This document shows positions 16,246 through 56,986 of a stretch of 57,536 bases of DNA, piece by piece. The position numbers were made by a program, and so were the translations under genes. The notes beneath the pieces were generated by a model that did no database searches, had not been told where the DNA came from, and saw only the letters and a program-made list of their open reading frames with translations. Position 1 is the first letter of the stretch, and every line of letters begins with the position of its first letter. The stretch lies in NCBI GenBank assembly GCA_023248215.1, contig JAHFEW010000014.1:5706-63241 (forward strand), in the 5' to 3' direction. The stretch is from Nitrospira sp. (GTDB taxonomy: Bacteria > Nitrospirota > Nitrospiria > Nitrospirales > Nitrospiraceae).

Positions 16246-16824
16246 CTACCCCTCGCTGAGAAATTTTTGGATCCACTGTACCGGCATGAGACCGGCCAAC
16301 ACAGCTCGATCCGGCCTTTCCAGAATTGGCACGCCTTGATGTTCCGTGTCGATCCATTGTTTCTCCCAGATGCGCAACAGAGGCTCGACCGCAATGGCAT
16401 CCACCCCGGCGATGAGCGCCGGAGCGAAACCCTGGCGTTCGGCTTCCTGCTGCAGTACGGCCTCATTGGAAAGGTCTTGGCCGTCCACCCAAAACAACCG
16501 GTACAACGATCGTGTCAAAGCCTGTGCTCGTGCGTGATCGAGCTGCAGGGCACGAGCTGCCGCGGCAATCGCGCGCCTGGTATTGGGTTTTCCACGCGGC
16601 ACTGTAATCGACAGCTCAGGCGCCAGCCGGCGGACCGCCTCAACTTCCAGCTTCAATTCGGCAGCCATATACCCCGACCATGTCGGCATCGGCAGTGGGA
16701 GATGGGACGCATGTTGGATGCCGCGCCAGGAGACTCGATCCATCACGCCAAGGGCATGGAGGCGCTCATGCATCGCATAGCAGAAGGGACAATTGAAATC
16801 GCTGTACAACCGGTAGGGGTTCAT
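16246..16824 (-). CDS. DsbA-family thioredoxin-fold oxidoreductase (FrnE/HCCA isomerase type)
   Basis: The 192-residue protein begins YRLYSDFNCPFCYAMHERLH, a thioredoxin-fold strand with C12-P-F-C15. Residues 40-160 are the all-helical insertion typical of DsbA, with a helix starting NTRRAIAAAARALQLD. The cis-proline region is GVPILERP. There is no signal peptide, so it acts in the cytoplasm, like FrnE-type disulfide oxidoreductases and 2-hydroxychromene-2-carboxylate isomerase relatives. The CPFC motif favours a redox role. It lies downstream of a dispersed-element copy and faces no clear partner. The physiological substrate is unknown. Confidence 0.8.
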   Translation of the reverse strand: MNPYRLYSDFNCPFCYAMHERLHALGVMDRVSWRGIQHASHLPLPMPTWSGYMAAELKLEVEAVRRLAPELSITVPRGKPNTRRAIAAAARALQLDHARAQALTRSLYRLFWVDGQDLSNEAVLQQEAERQGFAPALIAGVDAIAVEPLLRIWEKQWIDTEHQGVPILERPDRAVLAGLMPVQWIQKFLSEG

Positions 16825-16910: not shown

Positions 16911-17037
16911 CAGGATGGTCAAAAAGGCCGTCCAGCGAGGCCGCAGCGAGGCGAGGGGGCGAGGCGTACCCTTGCGGTACGTGGAGCCTCTGAGCGATGC
17001 GAGAACAAAGCTGACGGCCTTTTTCACCATCCTGCTA
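16911..17037 (+). repeat. Dispersed CAGGATGG element, short copy E (best preserved)
   Basis: Termini are CAGGATGGTCAAAAAGGCC (from 16911) and GGCCTTTTTCACCATCCTG (ending 17034), nearly perfect inverted repeats, extended by CCGTC/GACGG. Between them lie gcgaggccgcagcgaggcg, a gtacccttgcggtac hairpin (16967-16981) and gagcgatgcgagaacaaagc. The last bases CTAG hold the stop codon (17035-17037 on the minus strand) of the cyclase gene. The GC stem followed by TTTTT on both strands fits a bidirectional terminator. This copy lacks the extra internal block of copies B, D and F. Confidence 0.8.
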
Positions 17038-17847
17038 GGGTAGAATGGCGATGATACGCACGGGAGCTCCCGTGCCACCGGCGATCTTCATCGGCAAAGC
17101 CACGATCGTGGCGCCGGAGGGAGGGACTTCTTCGAGTCGCGCCACGTTTTCGAGACCATACAGACCGGCTACGCTGAGAATCCGGTGGACCACAAAATCC
17201 TGAGAGCCCCCATAGTCGATGCTGGGCGTATCAATCCCGACACCATGGATGTGTCGTTCGGCCACCAGAAACTCCGCGACTTCTTTTGAGAACCCAGGAA
17301 AATGGAGCGTCGCAGCAAGATTCGGCGTGGCCGTGCCGAAATACCGCTCGCGATCCTTCCAGTAGGCGCCCCACCCTGTCAGCATCATAACGACCGCGCC
17401 GCTCGGTATTGTGCCATGCTTGGCCTCCCAGCGCTGAATGTCTTCCAACGATAAACGGTAGTCGCGATCGCCGGCCACAGCAGCTCGTACATCAATCACC
17501 ACGGCAGGCCCCATCAGGCGCTCGACGGGGATACCCTCGATCCCCGCTTGTCCCTGCGCAAAATGAACGGGAGCATCCATGTGGGTTCCGGCATGTTCCG
17601 ATAGCGCTACTTGTCCCGTCGCGTACCAGGCTTCGGTCGTCGTCCCTCCCCGCACCGTTGAGTCCCGGTGAAATGGAAGATTGCTCGGCCAGACCTGCGT
17701 GGTCTCGTCAAACGTATAGGTGAGGTCAACGAGACGCTGTGCGGCCTTGGCGTCACACCACAAGCTCGTGGCGATCAGCAGGACGAACAACCCGACGGCC
17801 CGAGAAAGCGTCGCAGACCGATTGCCCTTTTGTTCTCTGTTCTCCAT
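17035..17847 (-). CDS. Secreted cyclase-family metal hydrolase (kynurenine formamidase-like)
   Basis: Members of the cyclase family are metal-dependent amidases or cyclases such as kynurenine formamidase and isatin hydrolase. The metal-binding signature H-x-G-T-H-x-D-x-P-x-H is intact at residues 85-95. I chose ATG 17847, with aaggag 5 bases upstream, which gives 270 residues with a signal peptide (AVGLFVLLIATSLWCDAKA). The enzyme is therefore probably periplasmic, which is less usual for kynurenine formamidase. It is divergent from the RuBisCO-like gene with 124 bases between the starts. Its TAG stop lies within the terminal CTAG of the dispersed element. The substrate cannot be told. Confidence 0.85.
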   Translation of the reverse strand: MENREQKGNRSATLSRAVGLFVLLIATSLWCDAKAAQRLVDLTYTFDETTQVWPSNLPFHRDSTVRGGTTTEAWYATGQVALSEHAGTHMDAPVHFAQGQAGIEGIPVERLMGPAVVIDVRAAVAGDRDYRLSLEDIQRWEAKHGTIPSGAVVMMLTGWGAYWKDRERYFGTATPNLAATLHFPGFSKEVAEFLVAERHIHGVGIDTPSIDYGGSQDFVVHRILSVAGLYGLENVARLEEVPPSGATIVALPMKIAGGTGAPVRIIAILP

Positions 17848-17971
17848 TGTTCTCCTTGTCGCGAAGCACAGGCCCATACCCACAGCGCTGCTGTGCGCCG
17901 AAGGACTACCGGCTTGGGCGGAAATACGGTACCCTCTCCCCCTCACAACTGCAACCTCGGAGGTGCCAGGC

Positions 17972-19138
17972 ATGCCGCAACGGTCAACCCAGGAAAGCGA
18001 CGTTCGGTTTTCTGGGCAGCGCTTTTCAGTGGAGTACCACATTCATGGATCTGCAGCAGAGGCACACGAGCGTGCGGATCTTCTCTGTATCGAACAGACC
18101 GTCGAGGCGGCCGATCACGTCATTCCGTCTGGAGCGATTCGGGACCAGCTGCTGGGCCGAGTGATTGAACTGGAATCCTTGAGCCCTGCGCTCCACCGTG
18201 CCGTGATAAGTTTTCCCACTGAACTCCTCGATGGATCCGTGAGTACCCTTCTTCACATGACATTCGGGATGGCCAGCTTACGAGGACAGGTCCGCGCCAC
18301 GGACCTGTCGCTCCCGGACGATATGGTCGCGCACATGGTCGGCCCTCGCTTCGGATCGCAGGGCCTTCGCGACCTGCTTCACGTGCCGCGGCGCCCGCTG
18401 ATCTGCGCCGTCTTGAAGCCGCTCGGGCTTTCTCCGCGACAGCTGGCCGCCCTGGCCCACCAATTTGCACTCGGTGAAGTCGATCTGATCAAGGACGACC
18501 AGAGCCTTGGCGACCACCCCTTCTGCCGATTCGAGGAGCGGATCGCACGATGCGCGGAAGCCATTGGCGAGGCTTCGCATCGAACAGGAAAAACTTGCCT
18601 GTATGCCCCCCATATTTCCAGTCCCTGGCCTATGCTCATGGAACGAGCCGGCCTGGCACAGAAAGCCGGCGCTGGCGCCCTTCTCGTCTGTCCGGGCCTC
18701 GTGGGCTTTGACGCCATGGCTTCCCTGGCAAGCCTCCCTTCGGTCTCGCTCCCCCTCATCTCGCACCCAGACTTTCTCGGGAGCCATTATGTATCGCCGG
18801 ACAGTGGCCTCGCCCCCTCAGTCATTTTTGGGCTCCTCCCCAGACTTGCCGGCGCCGACATCTCCATCTACCCCACTTTTGGACTGACGTACCCGATCTC
18901 ACAAGCAGACTGCCGGCAAATTGCGGCATCCTGTCGACGATCACTTGGCCTATGTCTACCGATCTTTCCAACCGCCGCAGGGAGAATGACCTCGTCGCGC
19001 ATCCATGAAATGGCAATGTTGTACGGCCAAGACCTGGTTTACGTTCTCGGCAGTGAGGTACGCCGGGAGCCACAGGAAACACACACCGCCTGCCTGGAGT
19101 TTCTCCGCCTGGTGGAGAAAGAGATGCCCAGCCCATAA
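17972..19138 (+). CDS. RuBisCO-like protein (form IV)
   Basis: RuBisCO-like proteins share the RuBisCO large-subunit fold but usually act as enolases or isomerases in sulfur metabolism, or have unknown roles. From ATG 17972 (ggaggtgccaggc upstream) the product has 388 residues. The loop LKPLGLS keeps the Lys149 equivalent of Lys175 but not Lys177. The carbamylation region reads LIKDDQSLGD, with Lys174 and Asp176 kept and Glu204 replaced by Gln177. The barrel continues with ISHPDFLGSH (His of strand 5), LPRLAGADISIYPTFG and a C-terminal FPTAAGRMTS. Loop 6 Lys334 is not recognisable, so CO2 fixation is excluded. It may be metabolically linked to the divergent cyclase. Confidence 0.85.
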   Translation: MPQRSTQESDVRFSGQRFSVEYHIHGSAAEAHERADLLCIEQTVEAADHVIPSGAIRDQLLGRVIELESLSPALHRAVISFPTELLDGSVSTLLHMTFGMASLRGQVRATDLSLPDDMVAHMVGPRFGSQGLRDLLHVPRRPLICAVLKPLGLSPRQLAALAHQFALGEVDLIKDDQSLGDHPFCRFEERIARCAEAIGEASHRTGKTCLYAPHISSPWPMLMERAGLAQKAGAGALLVCPGLVGFDAMASLASLPSVSLPLISHPDFLGSHYVSPDSGLAPSVIFGLLPRLAGADISIYPTFGLTYPISQADCRQIAASCRRSLGLCLPIFPTAAGRMTSSRIHEMAMLYGQDLVYVLGSEVRREPQETHTACLEFLRLVEKEMPSP

Positions 19139-19398: not shown

Positions 19399-20751
19399 GT
19401 GACGTCTTTGCCTCGCAAGTCAGATGGACAACCTAAGATCCGCACACCGGAGACCATCACCGTCAGTCCGGAGTCTCTCCGAGTGGGCATGTATGTCGAC
19501 CTGAATTGTTCATGGTTCAAGCACCCGTTCCCGCGACGATCGTTCAGGATTGCCTCGCAGGGTCAGATCAGAACCATCTGCGGACTTGGGCTGGCCACGG
19601 TACTGGTGTATCCACGGGAATCAGACCCGGACACAACGACGGACACTCCCTCCACCTCACCCCCTTCGATATCGGAAACGACCACGAAAACGGGACCTGA
19701 CACCACCTTGGTCGACCAGGCATCGCCGTCGCGCAACGGATCCCTCCCGACCCCCAGCGACTACCATCAGGCGGGAGAACTGGCATCCGAGGCCTACCGA
19801 CAGGTAATCCAACGCAGTTCGGAGATGATGAGAGAACTCGCCACTGGATCCCCGGAAGGATTGCGTAACGCGAAAGTCATGATCAATGGGCTCAGCACGC
19901 TGCTGACCAATACCGAAGCTGCCGGCATGGTAGCCAGCGCATTCAATCCCGAAGACCTCGACAGCTTAAATATCCTGCATGCCCTCAATGTGGCGACCCT
20001 CTCCATGATGGTCGCGCAACATTTCGATATCGAGCAGGATTCGATACAGCTGATCGGCATGGCGGGACTCTTGCTTGATATCGGAGAGCAGCGTATCCCG
20101 AACCGTATCCTCAGAAATCGATCCAACCTCTCCCATCGGGAAACCAGGGAATACCATCTGCACCCCTATCACGCCATTGACATGCTCAGGCGATATCCGG
20201 GCTTCCCGGAGGAAGTCTTGGATATCATCCGCAGTCACCATGAGCGGCTGGATGGATCCGGCTATCCGGAGAAACTCAAGGGCGAGCAGATTCCCCTTCC
20301 CGTCAGAATCATTAGTGCCGTCGATCAGTACGACTCGCTCATCAACCACCCGAATCCGAAGCAGGCTGTCTCTCCGGCGGAAGCCTTGTCCAGAATGTAT
20401 AAGCATCAACAGCACCTGTTTGCACCCGATGTTGTCGTGGCAATGATTCAAACTTTCGGCGTCTATCCCCCGGGGACCGTGGTCACGCTTTCCGATGGCT
20501 CTCTCGGGCTCGTGCTCAATATCAATTTTGAAATCCGTCTCAAGCCGCTTGTTCTGATCTACGATCCAGCCGCCTCGAAAGACTCTCCCCCCACCATTGA
20601 CCTCTCCCTGCAATCCGAGCCCACCATCGTCCGCGCCATGTCTCGCGCCGAATTGCCCTGTGCAGTGGCCGAATATTTTCATCTCAAACGGTGGACAGGC
20701 TACTTCATTCAATCCTCCATGCGTACCGCTCGTGAAGAAACGGCCACGTGA
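19399..20751 (+). CDS. HD-GYP-like protein with a degenerate catalytic HD motif
   Basis: An N-terminal DUF3391-like segment (residues 20-75, VSPESLRVGMYVDLN) precedes a threonine/proline-rich linker and an HD-GYP domain (about 180-345). Working HD-GYP proteins hydrolyse cyclic di-GMP. Here the metal-binding L-L-H-D-I-G-K reads LLLDIGE at 224-230, so the HD histidine and the lysine are lost, whereas HHERLDGSGYP (280-290) is intact. Catalysis is probably lost or altered, leaving a possible c-di-GMP sensor or protein-binding role. The start GTG at 19399 has only a weak GAGAGA upstream. The 19139-19398 gap is AT-rich and promoter-like without a clear gene. Confidence 0.82.
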   Translation: MTSLPRKSDGQPKIRTPETITVSPESLRVGMYVDLNCSWFKHPFPRRSFRIASQGQIRTICGLGLATVLVYPRESDPDTTTDTPSTSPPSISETTTKTGPDTTLVDQASPSRNGSLPTPSDYHQAGELASEAYRQVIQRSSEMMRELATGSPEGLRNAKVMINGLSTLLTNTEAAGMVASAFNPEDLDSLNILHALNVATLSMMVAQHFDIEQDSIQLIGMAGLLLDIGEQRIPNRILRNRSNLSHRETREYHLHPYHAIDMLRRYPGFPEEVLDIIRSHHERLDGSGYPEKLKGEQIPLPVRIISAVDQYDSLINHPNPKQAVSPAEALSRMYKHQQHLFAPDVVVAMIQTFGVYPPGTVVTLSDGSLGLVLNINFEIRLKPLVLIYDPAASKDSPPTIDLSLQSEPTIVRAMSRAELPCAVAEYFHLKRWTGYFIQSSMRTAREETAT

Positions 20752-20802: not shown

Positions 20803-22995
20803 ATGGCCTTGCCGCGCGTGCTGCTGCTCATTCCTCCGTTGACACAACTGAATACGCCCTATCCCTCGACCGCCCATTTGACAGGATTCCTACGCTCCCG
20901 TGGCTATGAGGCCGCGCAGGCAGACCTCGGCCTTGAAATGATCCTGCGCCTCTTCTCCCGATCCGGGCTGGCGCAGGCGTTTCAACGCATCAAAAGCGCG
21001 GGCCGGTCATGGCGTGGAGAGGTCCAACAAATCCTGGCGCTTGAAGACGCCTATCTCGCAACGATCGAACCGGTGATCGCGTTTCTCCAAGGCCAGGATC
21101 CCATGCTCGCGCCGCACCTTGCCCGGCCTGGATTCCTTCCGGAAGGTCCCCGCTTTGCCGCCCAGAACCACCAGGGGAATGGCCGGGCCACGTCATCGCC
21201 GTCAGACCAGGCCCGTCATCGTGCCACCCTGTACATTGAGGATCTTACGGACCTGCTTCACGAGACCGTCGCGCCCCACTTATTTTTGAACCGCTATGCC
21301 GAACAGATCACGCAGGCCACCTCCTCGTTCGACCACATCGAGCAGGCGCTCGCTCAACCATTGAGCCTCACCGACGACCTGTTGCTGGAAACGCTCTGGC
21401 CGCATATCGACCGCTCCAGCCCCGACGTCGTCGGCCTGACTGTCCCTTTTCCTGGCAATCTCTTCGGCGCATTGCGGATTGCTCAAGCGCTCAAGACCCA
21501 ACGGCCAGATATCGCCTTGGTCCTCGGTGGCGGCTATGTGAATACCGAACTGAGACGGCTGGAAGACCCTCGCCTGTTCCAGTACGTCGACTATGTCGCG
21601 CTCGACGACGGCGAGCGCCCCCTCCTCTGTCTCCTCGATCACCTGGCCGGCGGGCGCCCGAATACCTTACTTCGCCGGACGTTTCTCCTCACGAACGGCA
21701 AGGTCGCATTTCGGGACGGCAGCACCGAACCCGACTTGTCGATGCAGGAGCTCGGTACGCCGACCTATGCGGGCCTGCGGTTGACCCACTACCTCTCTAT
21801 TCTCGATAGTCTGAACCCCATGCACCGGCTCTGGTCGGAAGGCCACTGGAACAAGCTGACCGTCGCGCACGGCTGCTACTGGAAACAGTGCACCTTCTGC
21901 GATGTGGGACTGAACTATATCGCGCGCTATGAACCGACTCCGACCGACCTGCTGGTGGAACGGATCGAAGCCCTCATTCAGGAAACAGGACAACGGGGCT
22001 TTCACTTCGTCGACGAAGCCGCCCCCCCGGCTGCGCTGAAAGCCCTTGCCCTTCGACTGCTGGAGAAGCGGCTGACCATCTCCTGGTGGGGCAACATTCG
22101 GTTCGAGGAAGCCTTTTCACCTGACCTGGCCCGGCTGCTGGCGGCATCCGGCTGCATTGCCCTCACTGCCGGACTCGAAGCGGCATCCGACCGTCAGCTC
22201 GAACGGATGAAGAAGGGCATTACCGTGGACCAGACGGCAAGGGTTGCGGCCGCCTTTCGCCAGGCCGGCATTCTGGTGCATGCCTATCTGATGTATGGTT
22301 GTCCCGGCGAGACGATTGCCGACACGGTGGATTCGCTGGAGCGCGTCCGGCAACTCTTTGTGAACGAACTGCTGCAGTCCGCTTTTTGGCACAAGTTCAC
22401 GGCCACGGCCCACAGTCCCATCGGGCTCAACCCCGCCGCGGAAGGAATCACCATTCTCGGACCGGCATTCGGAGGCTTTGCCGAAAACGATCTCCGGCAT
22501 GCCGATCCCACAGCTACCTGCCCGGCTTGGCTCGGCGAAGGGTTACGTGCGGCGCTGCTCAACTATATCGAACAAGCCGGGCTCGACCTGCCGGTACAAC
22601 GATGGTTCTCACATGCGGTCAAACCGCCCCGGGTAGCACGGACCTGGGTGAAAACGGTGCTGGCCGTTCCCTCAGCTACAACTCTCAGCGCCGAACGACG
22701 CTGCGTCTGGATCGGCAGTACTCCTCTGGTGACCCCGCTAGGAGCGACGCGAAGCCGAGTCATTCTGCCGACTCGTGTGGAGGATTTCTCCCTCACCCTC
22801 TCACCGCGTCACGCCACCTGGTTGATCTCGCTTCTTCATCAGTCAACTCCGGGACCTCACCGGACCACCCACGAATACCCACGCCTCGCCGAAGCACGGG
22901 AACACTTTCCCGTCGCCGGCACACGAGGCTTCGATCGATTCAGTAACACCCGCGCCTGGCACACAATCCGTCACGCGGGGCTTTTGCTGGTCTGA
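20803..22995 (+). CDS. B12-binding radical SAM protein
   Basis: The 730-residue protein has an N-terminal cobalamin-binding-type Rossmann region (LLLIPPLTQLNTPYPSTAHL, later VVGLTVPFPGNL and IALVLGGGYVNTEL) and a central radical SAM barrel. The iron-sulfur cysteines are C358, C363 and C366 in GCYWKQCTFC, a C-x4-C-x2-C spacing seen in a subset of B12-dependent radical SAM enzymes rather than the usual C-x3-C-x2-C. Typical of the barrel are FVDEAAPPAAL and AGLEAASDRQLERMKKG. Such enzymes methylate or rearrange unactivated carbons; the substrate here is unknown. It starts 51 bases after the HD-GYP-like gene, on the same strand. Confidence 0.85.
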   Translation: MALPRVLLLIPPLTQLNTPYPSTAHLTGFLRSRGYEAAQADLGLEMILRLFSRSGLAQAFQRIKSAGRSWRGEVQQILALEDAYLATIEPVIAFLQGQDPMLAPHLARPGFLPEGPRFAAQNHQGNGRATSSPSDQARHRATLYIEDLTDLLHETVAPHLFLNRYAEQITQATSSFDHIEQALAQPLSLTDDLLLETLWPHIDRSSPDVVGLTVPFPGNLFGALRIAQALKTQRPDIALVLGGGYVNTELRRLEDPRLFQYVDYVALDDGERPLLCLLDHLAGGRPNTLLRRTFLLTNGKVAFRDGSTEPDLSMQELGTPTYAGLRLTHYLSILDSLNPMHRLWSEGHWNKLTVAHGCYWKQCTFCDVGLNYIARYEPTPTDLLVERIEALIQETGQRGFHFVDEAAPPAALKALALRLLEKRLTISWWGNIRFEEAFSPDLARLLAASGCIALTAGLEAASDRQLERMKKGITVDQTARVAAAFRQAGILVHAYLMYGCPGETIADTVDSLERVRQLFVNELLQSAFWHKFTATAHSPIGLNPAAEGITILGPAFGGFAENDLRHADPTATCPAWLGEGLRAALLNYIEQAGLDLPVQRWFSHAVKPPRVARTWVKTVLAVPSATTLSAERRCVWIGSTPLVTPLGATRSRVILPTRVEDFSLTLSPRHATWLISLLHQSTPGPHRTTHEYPRLAEAREHFPVAGTRGFDRFSNTRAWHTIRHAGLLLV

Positions 22996-23278: not shown

Positions 23279-23829
23279 AAAATCGCATTTGAATGCCCCG
23301 CCCGGAAGGGCGGGGATGAAAAATGCGTGCTGCCGGAGGCAGCAGCGATCCGGTAGAGTAGTGGCATGGCCATCAGACGAGCCAGCCACTGTGTGTACGA
23401 CACCTGCTATCATCTGGTGTGGGCGCCCAAGTATCGGAAATGGGTGTTGCAAGGGGCGATTCGGCAGCGGGTCAGGGAACTGTTTTGCGAGATTGCGGGG
23501 CATCACGGATTTGAGATTGAGGCATTGGAGGTGGACAAGGATCATGTCCATCTGTTTCTCAGTTTTCCGCCGAAGTACTCGATCGGCGCGGTGGTGGGGC
23601 TGCTGAAGGCGGTCAGCGCCAAGGAGATTCGGGAGGAGTTTCCGGAGGTCCGGAAGCAGCTGTGGGGCGGAGAGTGTTGGGAAGATGGGTATGTTGTTCG
23701 GACGGTGGGTGACAAAGTGACAGCCGATGTGATCAAGAAGTACATTCGGTTTCATGAGGCGAAGAAGAGAGGGGCTGAACAATTGGACCTCTTCTAGAAA
23801 GCCCCGCCCGGAAGGGCGGGGTTCTTTAC
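23279..23829 (+). mobile_element. IS200/IS605-family element with hairpin ends
   Basis: The same hairpin CCCCGCCCGGAAGGGCGGGG stands at both ends (23296-23315 and 23802-23821) in direct orientation around a single Y1 transposase gene. The left stem is extended by cgcattt/aaatgcg (23284-23290 and 23320-23326), the right one by gaaa/ttct. Borders are approximate. As expected for this family there are no terminal inverted repeats or target duplications. There is no tnpB gene, so it is an IS200-like minimal element. It lies inside an exported-protein gene. Confidence 0.85.
23366..23797 (+). CDS. tnpA: IS200/IS605-family HUH transposase TnpA
   Basis: TnpA cuts and joins single-stranded DNA at hairpin ends through a tyrosine-DNA link. 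The 143-residue protein has the HUH metal site at H60-V-H62 in KDHVHLFLSFPP and the catalytic Tyr126 in VTADVIKKYIRFH, both intact, and WAPKYRKWVL at the N-terminus as in IS200-type enzymes. The length is typical. It is the only gene of the element. Both end hairpins are preserved, so the element may still be active. Confidence 0.93.
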   Translation: MAIRRASHCVYDTCYHLVWAPKYRKWVLQGAIRQRVRELFCEIAGHHGFEIEALEVDKDHVHLFLSFPPKYSIGAVVGLLKAVSAKEIREEFPEVRKQLWGGECWEDGYVVRTVGDKVTADVIKKYIRFHEAKKRGAEQLDLF

Positions 23830-56841: not shown

Positions 56842-56986
56842 CAGGATGGTCAAAAAGGCCGTCCAGCCAGGCCGCAGCGAGGTGCACGGCGCGATGAATA
56901 AAGAGCGCCACGTTTGCGCACGGGCGCGAGTCGGTGAGCGCCCAGTGTCCCCACAAAGCTGGCGGACTGTTTCACCATCCTGCTAG
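56842..56986 (+). repeat. Dispersed CAGGATGG element, copy G
   Basis: Left end caggatggtcaaaaaggccg (56842-56861), right end gcggactgtttcaccatcct (56962-56981) followed by gctag. The middle holds ccaggccgcagcgagg, gcgccacgtttgcgca and cacaaagctgg. Its terminal CTAG carries the stop of the minus-strand gene at 56983-57339. It is intermediate in length between copies E and B. Confidence 0.78.

What the first reader, a model, noticed from the sequence alone, without database searches (positions are those of the whole stretch)
17972..19138. RuBisCO-like protein with altered carbamylation loop, divergent from a secreted cyclase
LIKDDQSLGD keeps Lys201 and Asp203 equivalents but has Gln for Glu204; the Lys177 equivalent is missing in LKPLGLS. 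This pattern excludes CO2 fixation and may define a RuBisCO-like subgroup. The 124-base divergent promoter region with a metal-dependent hydrolase suggests shared regulation.
Basis: partly seen in the sequence, partly recalled or inferred. Interest (0 to 1): 0.65.

Follow-up and report, generated by a model that had tools for sequence, protein, structure and literature searches.

The report
Partnerless RuBisCO-like enzyme in Nitrospira
This Nitrospira gene makes a RuBisCO look-alike that cannot fix CO2; it descends from sugar-phosphate isomerases that recycle by-products of S-adenosylmethionine, but its active site has been rebuilt and its usual partner genes are missing, so its reaction is an open and testable question.

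Summary
In detail: 17972-19138(+) encodes a 388-residue RuBisCO-like protein with Lys175, Lys201 and Asp203 kept, Gln at 204 and Lys177 deleted. The class was missed. Lys177 is deleted in 61 of 61 sequences of one clade and 0 of 40 other RuBisCO-family rows. The clade contains the R. palustris structure 3qfw, almost certainly RLP1 of the DeepYkr class, which converts 5-methylthioribulose-1-phosphate to 1-methylthioxylulose-5-phosphate for a cupin partner. What is unusual is a branch inside it. In Nitrospiraceae, five site positions that DeepYkr relatives keep (Asn123, His204, Arg334, Gly381, Gly403) have become mostly Met/Thr, Gln, variable, Arg and Ser. The branch is under purifying selection; the gene is in 22 of 25 genomes of the genus. 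His-type relatives carry a cupin or a transketolase-like pair at 18 of 21 loci, Gln-type at 0 of 34. MtnP and MtnA, which make the substrate, are present; MtnB and MtnD over cut-off are not. Best reading: an enolising isomerase of 5-modified ribulose-1-phosphates with altered phosphate binding. Boldest: it turns 5-deoxyribulose-1-phosphate straight into DXP. The hydrolase neighbour is conserved in the genus; shared regulation is unproven.

The parts
17972..19138 (+). RuBisCO-like protein, 388 aa, Gln-type branch of the DeepYkr clade
   Evidence: PF00016 78.6 bits; tree; AlphaFold model pLDDT 91.6, best match 3qfw
17959..17963 (+). GGAGG ribosome-binding-like site before the RLP start
   Evidence: sequence read directly
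18269..18271 (+). codon of Met100 (Asn123 position; Asn in 23 of 23 His-type rows)
18416..18418 (+). codon of Lys149 (Lys175); the Lys177 codon is deleted just after it
18491..18502 (+). codons of Lys174-Asp175-Asp176-Gln177 (Lys201, 202, Asp203, Glu204 positions)
18764..18769 (+). codons of His265-Pro266 (His294, Arg295 positions)
18887..18889 (+). codon of Thr306 (Lys334 position; Arg in 23 of 23 His-type rows)
18983..18985 (+). codon of Arg338 (Gly381 position; Arg in 36 of 37 Gln-type rows)
19052..19054 (+). codon of Ser361 (Gly403 position; Ser in 37 of 37 Gln-type rows)
17848..17971 (.). 124-base divergent intergenic region
   Evidence: no promoter-like site by consensus scan
17035..17847 (-). 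putative cyclase / metal-dependent hydrolase (PF04199) with a signal-peptide-like start (by eye), divergent from the RLP
   Evidence: divergent neighbour in 19 of 21 genus loci, and present at 2 of 13 other Gln-type loci
16246..16824 (-). DsbA-like thioredoxin-fold protein (PF01323)
   Evidence: conserved nearby in 20 of 21 genus loci
19399..20751 (+). HD-GYP-type HD-domain protein (PF13487, DUF3391)
   Evidence: conserved downstream in 21 of 21 genus loci
20803..22995 (+). B12-binding-type radical SAM protein
   Evidence: PF04055 54 bits; PF02310 31.2 bits, just under its cut-off of 32.1; downstream of RLP in 21 of 21 genus loci and 5 of 13 other Gln-type loci

Best explanation
It is a divergent, Gln204-type member of the DeepYkr clade of RuBisCO-like proteins. 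Most likely it still works by the superfamily's enolisation chemistry: a metal held by Lys174 (perhaps carbamylated), Asp176 and Gln177 activates a keto-sugar phosphate, a proton is moved, and the carbonyl shifts between C2 and C4 (a 1,3-isomerisation). The likely substrate is a 5-modified ribulose-1-phosphate made by MtnP and MtnA from spent S-adenosylmethionine: 5-methylthioribulose-1-phosphate (from MTA) or 5-deoxyribulose-1-phosphate (from 5'-deoxyadenosine). The site binding the single phosphate has been rebuilt: the arginine of loop 6 (position 334) is gone, an arginine has appeared at 381 and a serine at 403. Shown: clade, residue changes, purifying selection, presence of mtnP and mtnA, absence of the usual partners. 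Inferred: metal binding, isomerase activity, substrate.
For: Tree: the 52-row clade with 3qfw has SH-aLRT 100, and 30 Gln-type rows form a branch (97) next to transketolase-linked His-type rows. Nearest structure 3qfw from R. palustris (its Z of 46.4 is tied with 2zvi, 2oem and 2oek). R. palustris RLP1 is a DeepYkr RLP with shown 5-methylthioribulose-1-P 1,3-isomerase activity, RLP2 lacks it (PMC5893883, passages). His-type relatives sit with mtnK-mtnA-tkN-tkC (6 of 6 fetched rhizobial loci) or with a fused/adjacent cupin (7 loci). Lys175, Lys201, Asp203, His294 and Gly380 are kept in 37 of 37 Gln-type rows; dN/dS 0.16-0.27 over six Gln-type pairs. mtnP is over cut-off in 25 of 25 genus genomes; mtnA is in the own genome and in all 17 genus genomes (own included).
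Against: No CupA-like cupin: own genome 0 matches; in the genus 10 of 25 with weak matches at 25-27% identity. No RLP-type tkC: only 34% and 31% matches. So if the product is methylthioxylulose-5-phosphate, no known enzyme is seen to use it. Five site positions changed together, so the substrate may be quite different. No Gln-type gene was found beside mtn genes (mtnA). mtnA is nearly universal in the phylum (281 of 295), so its co-presence says little. A class II aldolase could dispose of the same substrates without the RLP.
Confidence: 0.5

Rival explanations
1. The Gln-type enzyme has left SAM by-product salvage: it uses the same enolisation on a different sugar- or keto-acid phosphate, perhaps connected with its conserved neighbours (cyclase-type hydrolase, DsbA-like protein, B12-type radical SAM protein).
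For: Five co-changed active-site positions; both partner types absent at 34 of 34 Gln-type loci; radical SAM gene downstream in 21 of 21 genus loci and 5 of 13 others, cyclase divergent in 19 of 21.
Against: Neighbours are not kept in the other Gln-type loci: six loci of one other genus sit among housekeeping genes, so no neighbour is obligatory.
Confidence: 0.33
2. It is no longer an enzyme and acts as a scaffold or stress protein.
For: dN/dS is higher in Gln-type pairs (0.16-0.27) than in the two His-type pairs (0.07, 0.11); Gln at a metal-ligand position.
Against: Lys175, Lys201, Asp203, His294, Pro295 and Gly380 are invariant in 37 of 37 rows, and the new Arg381 and Ser403 are themselves nearly invariant.
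Confidence: 0.1
3. It is MtnW, the 2,3-diketo-5-methylthiopentyl-1-phosphate enolase of the Bacillus-type methionine salvage pathway.
For: NF007095 (enolase) is the best NCBIfam match, at 187.6 bits.
Against: Far below that family's cut-off of 409; the tree puts YkrW rows in a separate branch; no mtnD or mtnB over cut-off in any of the 16 genus genomes searched.
Confidence: 0.04
4. It is a CO2-fixing RuBisCO, as one metagenome paper counts the Nitrospira protein among carbon-fixation genes (PMC6212598, passages).
For: Fold and Lys201/Asp203.
Against: Lys177, Glu204, Arg295, His298, His327, Lys334, Asn123, Gly381 and Gly403 are all lost.
Confidence: 0.01

Closest known systems
DeepYkr RLP of Rhodospirillum rubrum / Rhodopseudomonas palustris (RLP1), 5-methylthioribulose-1-phosphate 1,3-isomerase of the MTA-isoprenoid shunt
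   Same: Same clade as 3qfw, same fold, same Lys177 deletion, Lys175/Lys201/Asp203/His294/Pro295 kept
   Different: 34% identity to 3qfw; Gln not His at 204, Asn123, Arg334, Gly381 and Gly403 changed; no cupin partner found
RLPs in mtnK-mtnA-tkN-tkC-RLP operons of rhizobial plasmids
   Same: 39% identity to the R. rosettiformans protein (40% by tblastn); neighbouring branch in the tree
   Different: His-type site, with a dedicated transketolase-like pair
MtnW / YkrW enolase
   Same: Superfamily fold, 25-28% identity
   Different: Other branch; keeps a residue at the 177 column and Glu204
Photo RLP (2qyg, 1ykw) and OiaX 3-oxo-isoapionate-4-phosphate decarboxylase
   Same: Fold (Photo); sequence similarity only (OiaX)
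   Different: Separate branches; OiaX score 88.8 against a cut-off of 700

Membership tests
DeepYkr clade of form IV RLPs | Groups with R. palustris RLP1 (taken to be 3qfw) to the exclusion of YkrW, Photo, OiaX and true RuBisCO | tested here: met
   52-row clade, SH-aLRT 100. That 3qfw is RLP1 is an inference: it is an R. palustris RLP other than the entry titled rlp2, and R. palustris is reported to have two RLPs (PMC5893883)
DeepYkr clade of form IV RLPs | One-residue deletion at Lys177 (a mark found here, not taken from print) | tested here: met
   61 of 61 clade rows, 0 of 40 other rows
DeepYkr clade of form IV RLPs | His-type site of its other members (Asn123, His204, Arg334, Gly381, Gly403); a norm seen here, not a published criterion | tested here: not met
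   Met, Gln, Thr, Arg, Ser in the window. It is therefore filed as a divergent branch of the clade, not as a proven isomerase
MTA-isoprenoid shunt (pathway) | Cupin-type methylthioxylulose-5-P methylsulfurylase encoded | tested here: not met
   0 matches in the own genome to a fused Nitrospirota cupin domain; only 25-27% matches in 10 of 25 genus genomes
MTA-isoprenoid shunt (pathway) | MtnP and MtnA encoded | tested here: met
   own genome: MtnP 337.0 bits against 274.85, MtnA 459.9 against 279
MTA-isoprenoid shunt (pathway) | RLP has 5-methylthioribulose-1-P 1,3-isomerase activity | not testable with these tools
   needs protein and substrate
MtnW / YkrW enolase | Placement with YkrW; score over the family cut-off | tested here: not met
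   separate branch; 187.6 against 409 and 137.3 against 513.6 bits
RuBisCO (forms I-III) | Catalytic Lys177, Glu204, Arg295, His327, Lys334 | tested here: not met
   all five absent
OiaX decarboxylase | Score over NF042437 cut-off | tested here: not met
   88.8 against 700 bits

The most novel reading that the evidence does not exclude
The Gln-type enzyme is a 5-deoxyribulose-1-phosphate 1,3-isomerase that makes 1-deoxyxylulose-5-phosphate (DXP) directly. The shift that turns methylthioribulose-1-phosphate into methylthioxylulose-5-phosphate would turn 5-deoxyribulose-1-phosphate into DXP itself, so no cupin or transketolase partner would be needed, which is what the Gln-type loci show. Carbon from 5'-deoxyadenosine, the waste of radical SAM enzymes such as the one encoded next door, would then feed isoprenoid synthesis in nitrite-oxidising and comammox bacteria.
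Probability: 0.2. Interest if true: 0.8.

Novelty: new variant of a known kind. Interest (0 to 1): 0.5.

Why it matters
Nitrospira are major nitrite oxidisers, and their RuBisCO-like gene has been counted among carbon-fixation genes (PMC6212598). Placing it in the isomerase clade removes that reading and replaces it with a sharp biochemical question. The Gln-type branch is a natural experiment: one clade, one rebuilt site, no known partner gene beside it. Its substrate can be settled with one enzyme and two substrates. If it makes DXP directly, it is a new entry into isoprenoid biosynthesis and a new fate for 5'-deoxyadenosine.

Tried and rejected
Rejected: true RuBisCO (five or more catalytic residues absent); MtnW; OiaX; pseudogene (dN/dS; no internal stops in the 22 matches). 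The idea that the odd loop is private to this protein was dropped once the relatives were aligned.

Led nowhere: a CupA-like cupin or RLP-type transketolase in the genus; a conserved partner gene next to the other Gln-type loci; a sigma-70-type promoter in the divergent region (a weak test); papers joining 5-deoxyribulose-1-phosphate with 1-deoxyxylulose (0 papers), RLPs with transketolase and methylthio terms (2 papers, listings only, neither on this subject by title and abstract), Nitrospira with methylthioadenosine (listing only). The original papers on the clade (Tabita 2007, Erb 2012) are not held, so class names rest on PMC5893883 and PMC4958253 passages and on recall. Atomic distances in the AlphaFold model could not be measured; the phosphate-site reading rests on RuBisCO residue roles recalled from general knowledge.

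Limits: the Gln/His split and the loss of partners lie on one branch, so their association is one evolutionary event, not 34 independent ones. Rhizobial loci were picked by similarity. Of 101 distinct rows, 13 (L002-L007, L030, L036, L037, L052, L055-L057) were left out of the tree of 88 to avoid near-copies; six of these are Gln-type and three His-type. Row counts may include a few genes fetched twice with different start codons. L081, a Gln-type row with Gln at 381, has a long branch and an unsure place: the Gln204 group including L081 has support of only 79, the branch of 30 rows without it 97. L078 (Ser204, Thr123) is a third, intermediate type and is counted in neither group. The tree is the 'quick' kind, without bootstrap.

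Full report
What is there. The gene at 17972-19138(+) starts with ATG behind a GGAGG and encodes 388 residues. It matches the RuBisCO large-chain catalytic domain at 78.6 bits. It passes no NCBIfam family cut-off; the best match is an MtnW model at 187.6 of 409 bits, and an OiaX model scores 88.8 of 700. The window lies in a genome (G000) whose closest relatives in the named collection are mostly labelled Nitrospira. The gene is found in 22 of the 25 genomes of the genus that were searched, own genome included, and in 0 of 16 genomes of other genera of the order. The wider PF00016 family is in 102 of 295 genomes of the phylum.

I aligned 101 distinct RuBisCO-family sequences (115 before removing identical ones) and read the catalytic columns from a form I protein (the residue roles and numbering are general knowledge). 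The window keeps Glu60, Lys175, Lys201, Asp203, His294 and Gly380. It has Gln at 204 and a one-residue gap at Lys177. Other losses are Thr65>Ala, Asn123>Met, Arg295>Pro, His298>Leu, His327>Ile, Lys334>Thr, Gly381>Arg and Gly403>Ser. Carbon fixation by the known RuBisCO mechanism is excluded. Lys201 is intact, so 'altered carbamylation loop' applies only to its neighbour.

Which class. The Lys177 deletion is in 61 of 61 rows of one clade and in 0 of the other 40 rows. A maximum-likelihood tree of 88 rows, with five trait columns left out, puts the window in a 52-row clade (SH-aLRT 100) that contains 3qfw, and separates it from YkrW (4nas, 3fk4), Photo (1ykw, 2qyg), OiaX and true RuBisCO. An AlphaFold model (mean pLDDT 91.6) has 3qfw as its best Foldseek match (E 3.7e-36) and best Z (46.4, rmsd 1.6 over 351 residues); MtnW structures score within one Z unit, so the fold alone does not choose. 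3qfw is an R. palustris RLP and is not the entry titled rlp2. PMC5893883 (outline and passages) says that R. palustris RLP1 is a DeepYkr RLP and shows its 5-methylthioribulose-1-phosphate 1,3-isomerase activity, while RLP2 (Photo) lacks it. I therefore take 3qfw to be RLP1 and the clade to be DeepYkr; that identification is an inference.

What is unusual. Inside the clade, 23 His-type rows have Asn123, Arg334 and Gly381 in 23 of 23, and Gly403 in 22 of 23. The 37 Gln-type rows have Met, Thr, Ile or Ala at 123, no Arg at 334 (Asn, Asp, Gly, Thr, Gln or Glu), Arg381 in 36 of 37 and Ser403 in 37 of 37. L078 is a third type with Ser204. A positively charged residue has left loop 6 and another has appeared at 381, both next to what is the P1 phosphate site in RuBisCO (recalled). 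That looks like rebuilding rather than decay. Six Gln-type pairs give dN/dS 0.16-0.27; two His-type pairs give 0.07 and 0.11.

Gene context. I searched the fetched surroundings of 67 RLP loci for tkN, tkC, cupin, mtnA and the window's neighbours. Of 21 His-type loci, 10 have a transketolase-like pair directly upstream, 7 have a cupin domain fused or just downstream, 1 has the pair about 7 kb away, and 3 (L096, L097, L117) have neither within the fetched stretch. Of 34 Gln-type loci, 0 have either. In six rhizobial plasmids the order is mtnK-mtnA-tkN-tkC-RLP (annotated; by similarity in L119). In three genomes of one Nitrospirota family the RLP and cupin are a single protein of about 527 residues, which is what the R. 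rubrum pathway would lead one to expect of two consecutive enzymes (PMC4958253, passages). The Gln-type split lies on one branch, so this contrast is a single evolutionary event.

Is the pathway there? MtnP is over cut-off in 25 of 25 genus genomes. MtnA is in the own genome and the other 16 genus members in the phylum sample, but also in 281 of 295 genomes of the phylum, so it is not informative by itself. MtnD (ARD) and MtnB over cut-off are in 0 of 16 genus genomes; 10 of these 16 have a sub-threshold MtnB match, a class II aldolase in the own genome. A dedicated tkC (61% identity or more) occurs in 14 of 295 phylum genomes, 13 of which also have a RuBisCO-family gene; none is of the window's genus. 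The own genome has only 34% and 31% matches above 100 bits. No CupA-like cupin is found in the own genome, and only weak 25-27% matches in 10 of 25 genus genomes.

How it most likely works. Lys174, Asp176 and perhaps Gln177 hold a metal; the keto-sugar phosphate is enolised and the carbonyl moves from C2 to C4. The natural substrates to test are the two MtnA products. PMC10986504 (passages) names MtnA as acting on both methylthioribose-1-P and 5-deoxyribose-1-P. From methylthioribulose-1-P the product would be methylthioxylulose-5-P, which needs a partner that Nitrospira does not visibly have. From 5-deoxyribulose-1-P the same shift gives DXP, which needs no partner. This is my inference from structures and numbering, not a result; a search for papers joining the two compounds returned none.

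Neighbours. In the genus the RLP sits between a divergent cyclase-type hydrolase (19 of 21 loci; missing in L061 and L063) and an HD-domain protein (21 of 21) followed by a B12-type radical SAM protein (21 of 21). Outside the genus the radical SAM gene is kept in 5 of 13 Gln-type loci and the cyclase in 2 of 13. Six loci of another genus of the family sit among other, apparently housekeeping, genes. The cyclase link is therefore conserved within the genus but not required, and shared regulation is not shown.

What is known. Nitrospira RLPs have been noticed: one metagenome paper lists RuBisCO-like protein among Nitrospira CO2-fixation genes (PMC6212598, passages). In the searches I made I saw no paper on a Gln-type branch, but I read listings only for most hits, and subscription papers are not held. 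I rate it a new variant of a known kind.

Noticed in passing
L098:7576-9159(-), L099, L100:7990-9570(+): RuBisCO-like protein and cupin fused into one ~527-residue protein in three genomes of one Nitrospirota family; cupin just downstream in L101-L103 and in Terrarubrum L171.
   Followed up: partly
L118-L120, L172-L174 (rhizobial plasmids); L079, L093-L095 (Nitrospirota): RLP next to a two-gene transketolase/DXS-like enzyme, with mtnK-mtnA in the rhizobia. Possibly a thiamine-dependent enzyme that cleaves methylthioxylulose-5-phosphate and expels methanethiol, as phosphoketolase expels water; my inference, no such paper.
   Followed up: partly
window 16912-17033, 682-698, 56843-56859: Repeat AGGATGGTCAAAAAGGC: 6 matches with up to 2 mismatches against 0.01 expected, two of them in opposite orientation in the DsbA-cyclase intergenic region.
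   Followed up: no
L005, L006: Record titles name 'Candidatus Parvibacillus calidus' and 'uncultured Nitrosospira', but they hold Nitrospira-type RLPs at 67% identity; the labels may be wrong.
   Followed up: no
L039-L054, L107, L108: Another Nitrospirota family (f21) has up to 4 matched stretches of the RuBisCO family per genome, including a Photo-like type with Lys-Ser-Asp-Glu in place of Lys-Asp-Asp-Glu and a YkrW-related one (L106, L109).
   Followed up: no
L081 (G288), L078 (G169): Intermediate sites: L081 has Gln204 with Gln381 and Ser403; L078 has Ser204 and Thr123 but Arg334, Gly381 and Gly403. Useful for ordering the changes.
   Followed up: no
window 23366-23797 (+): ORF resembling an IS200/REP-type Y1 transposase (recognised by eye, no search made).
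   Followed up: no
G000:C156:19567-20142 (L175): Class II aldolase of 214 aa with a sub-threshold MtnB match (56 against 137 bits); could be a DHAP-shunt aldolase competing for the same substrates.
   Followed up: partly
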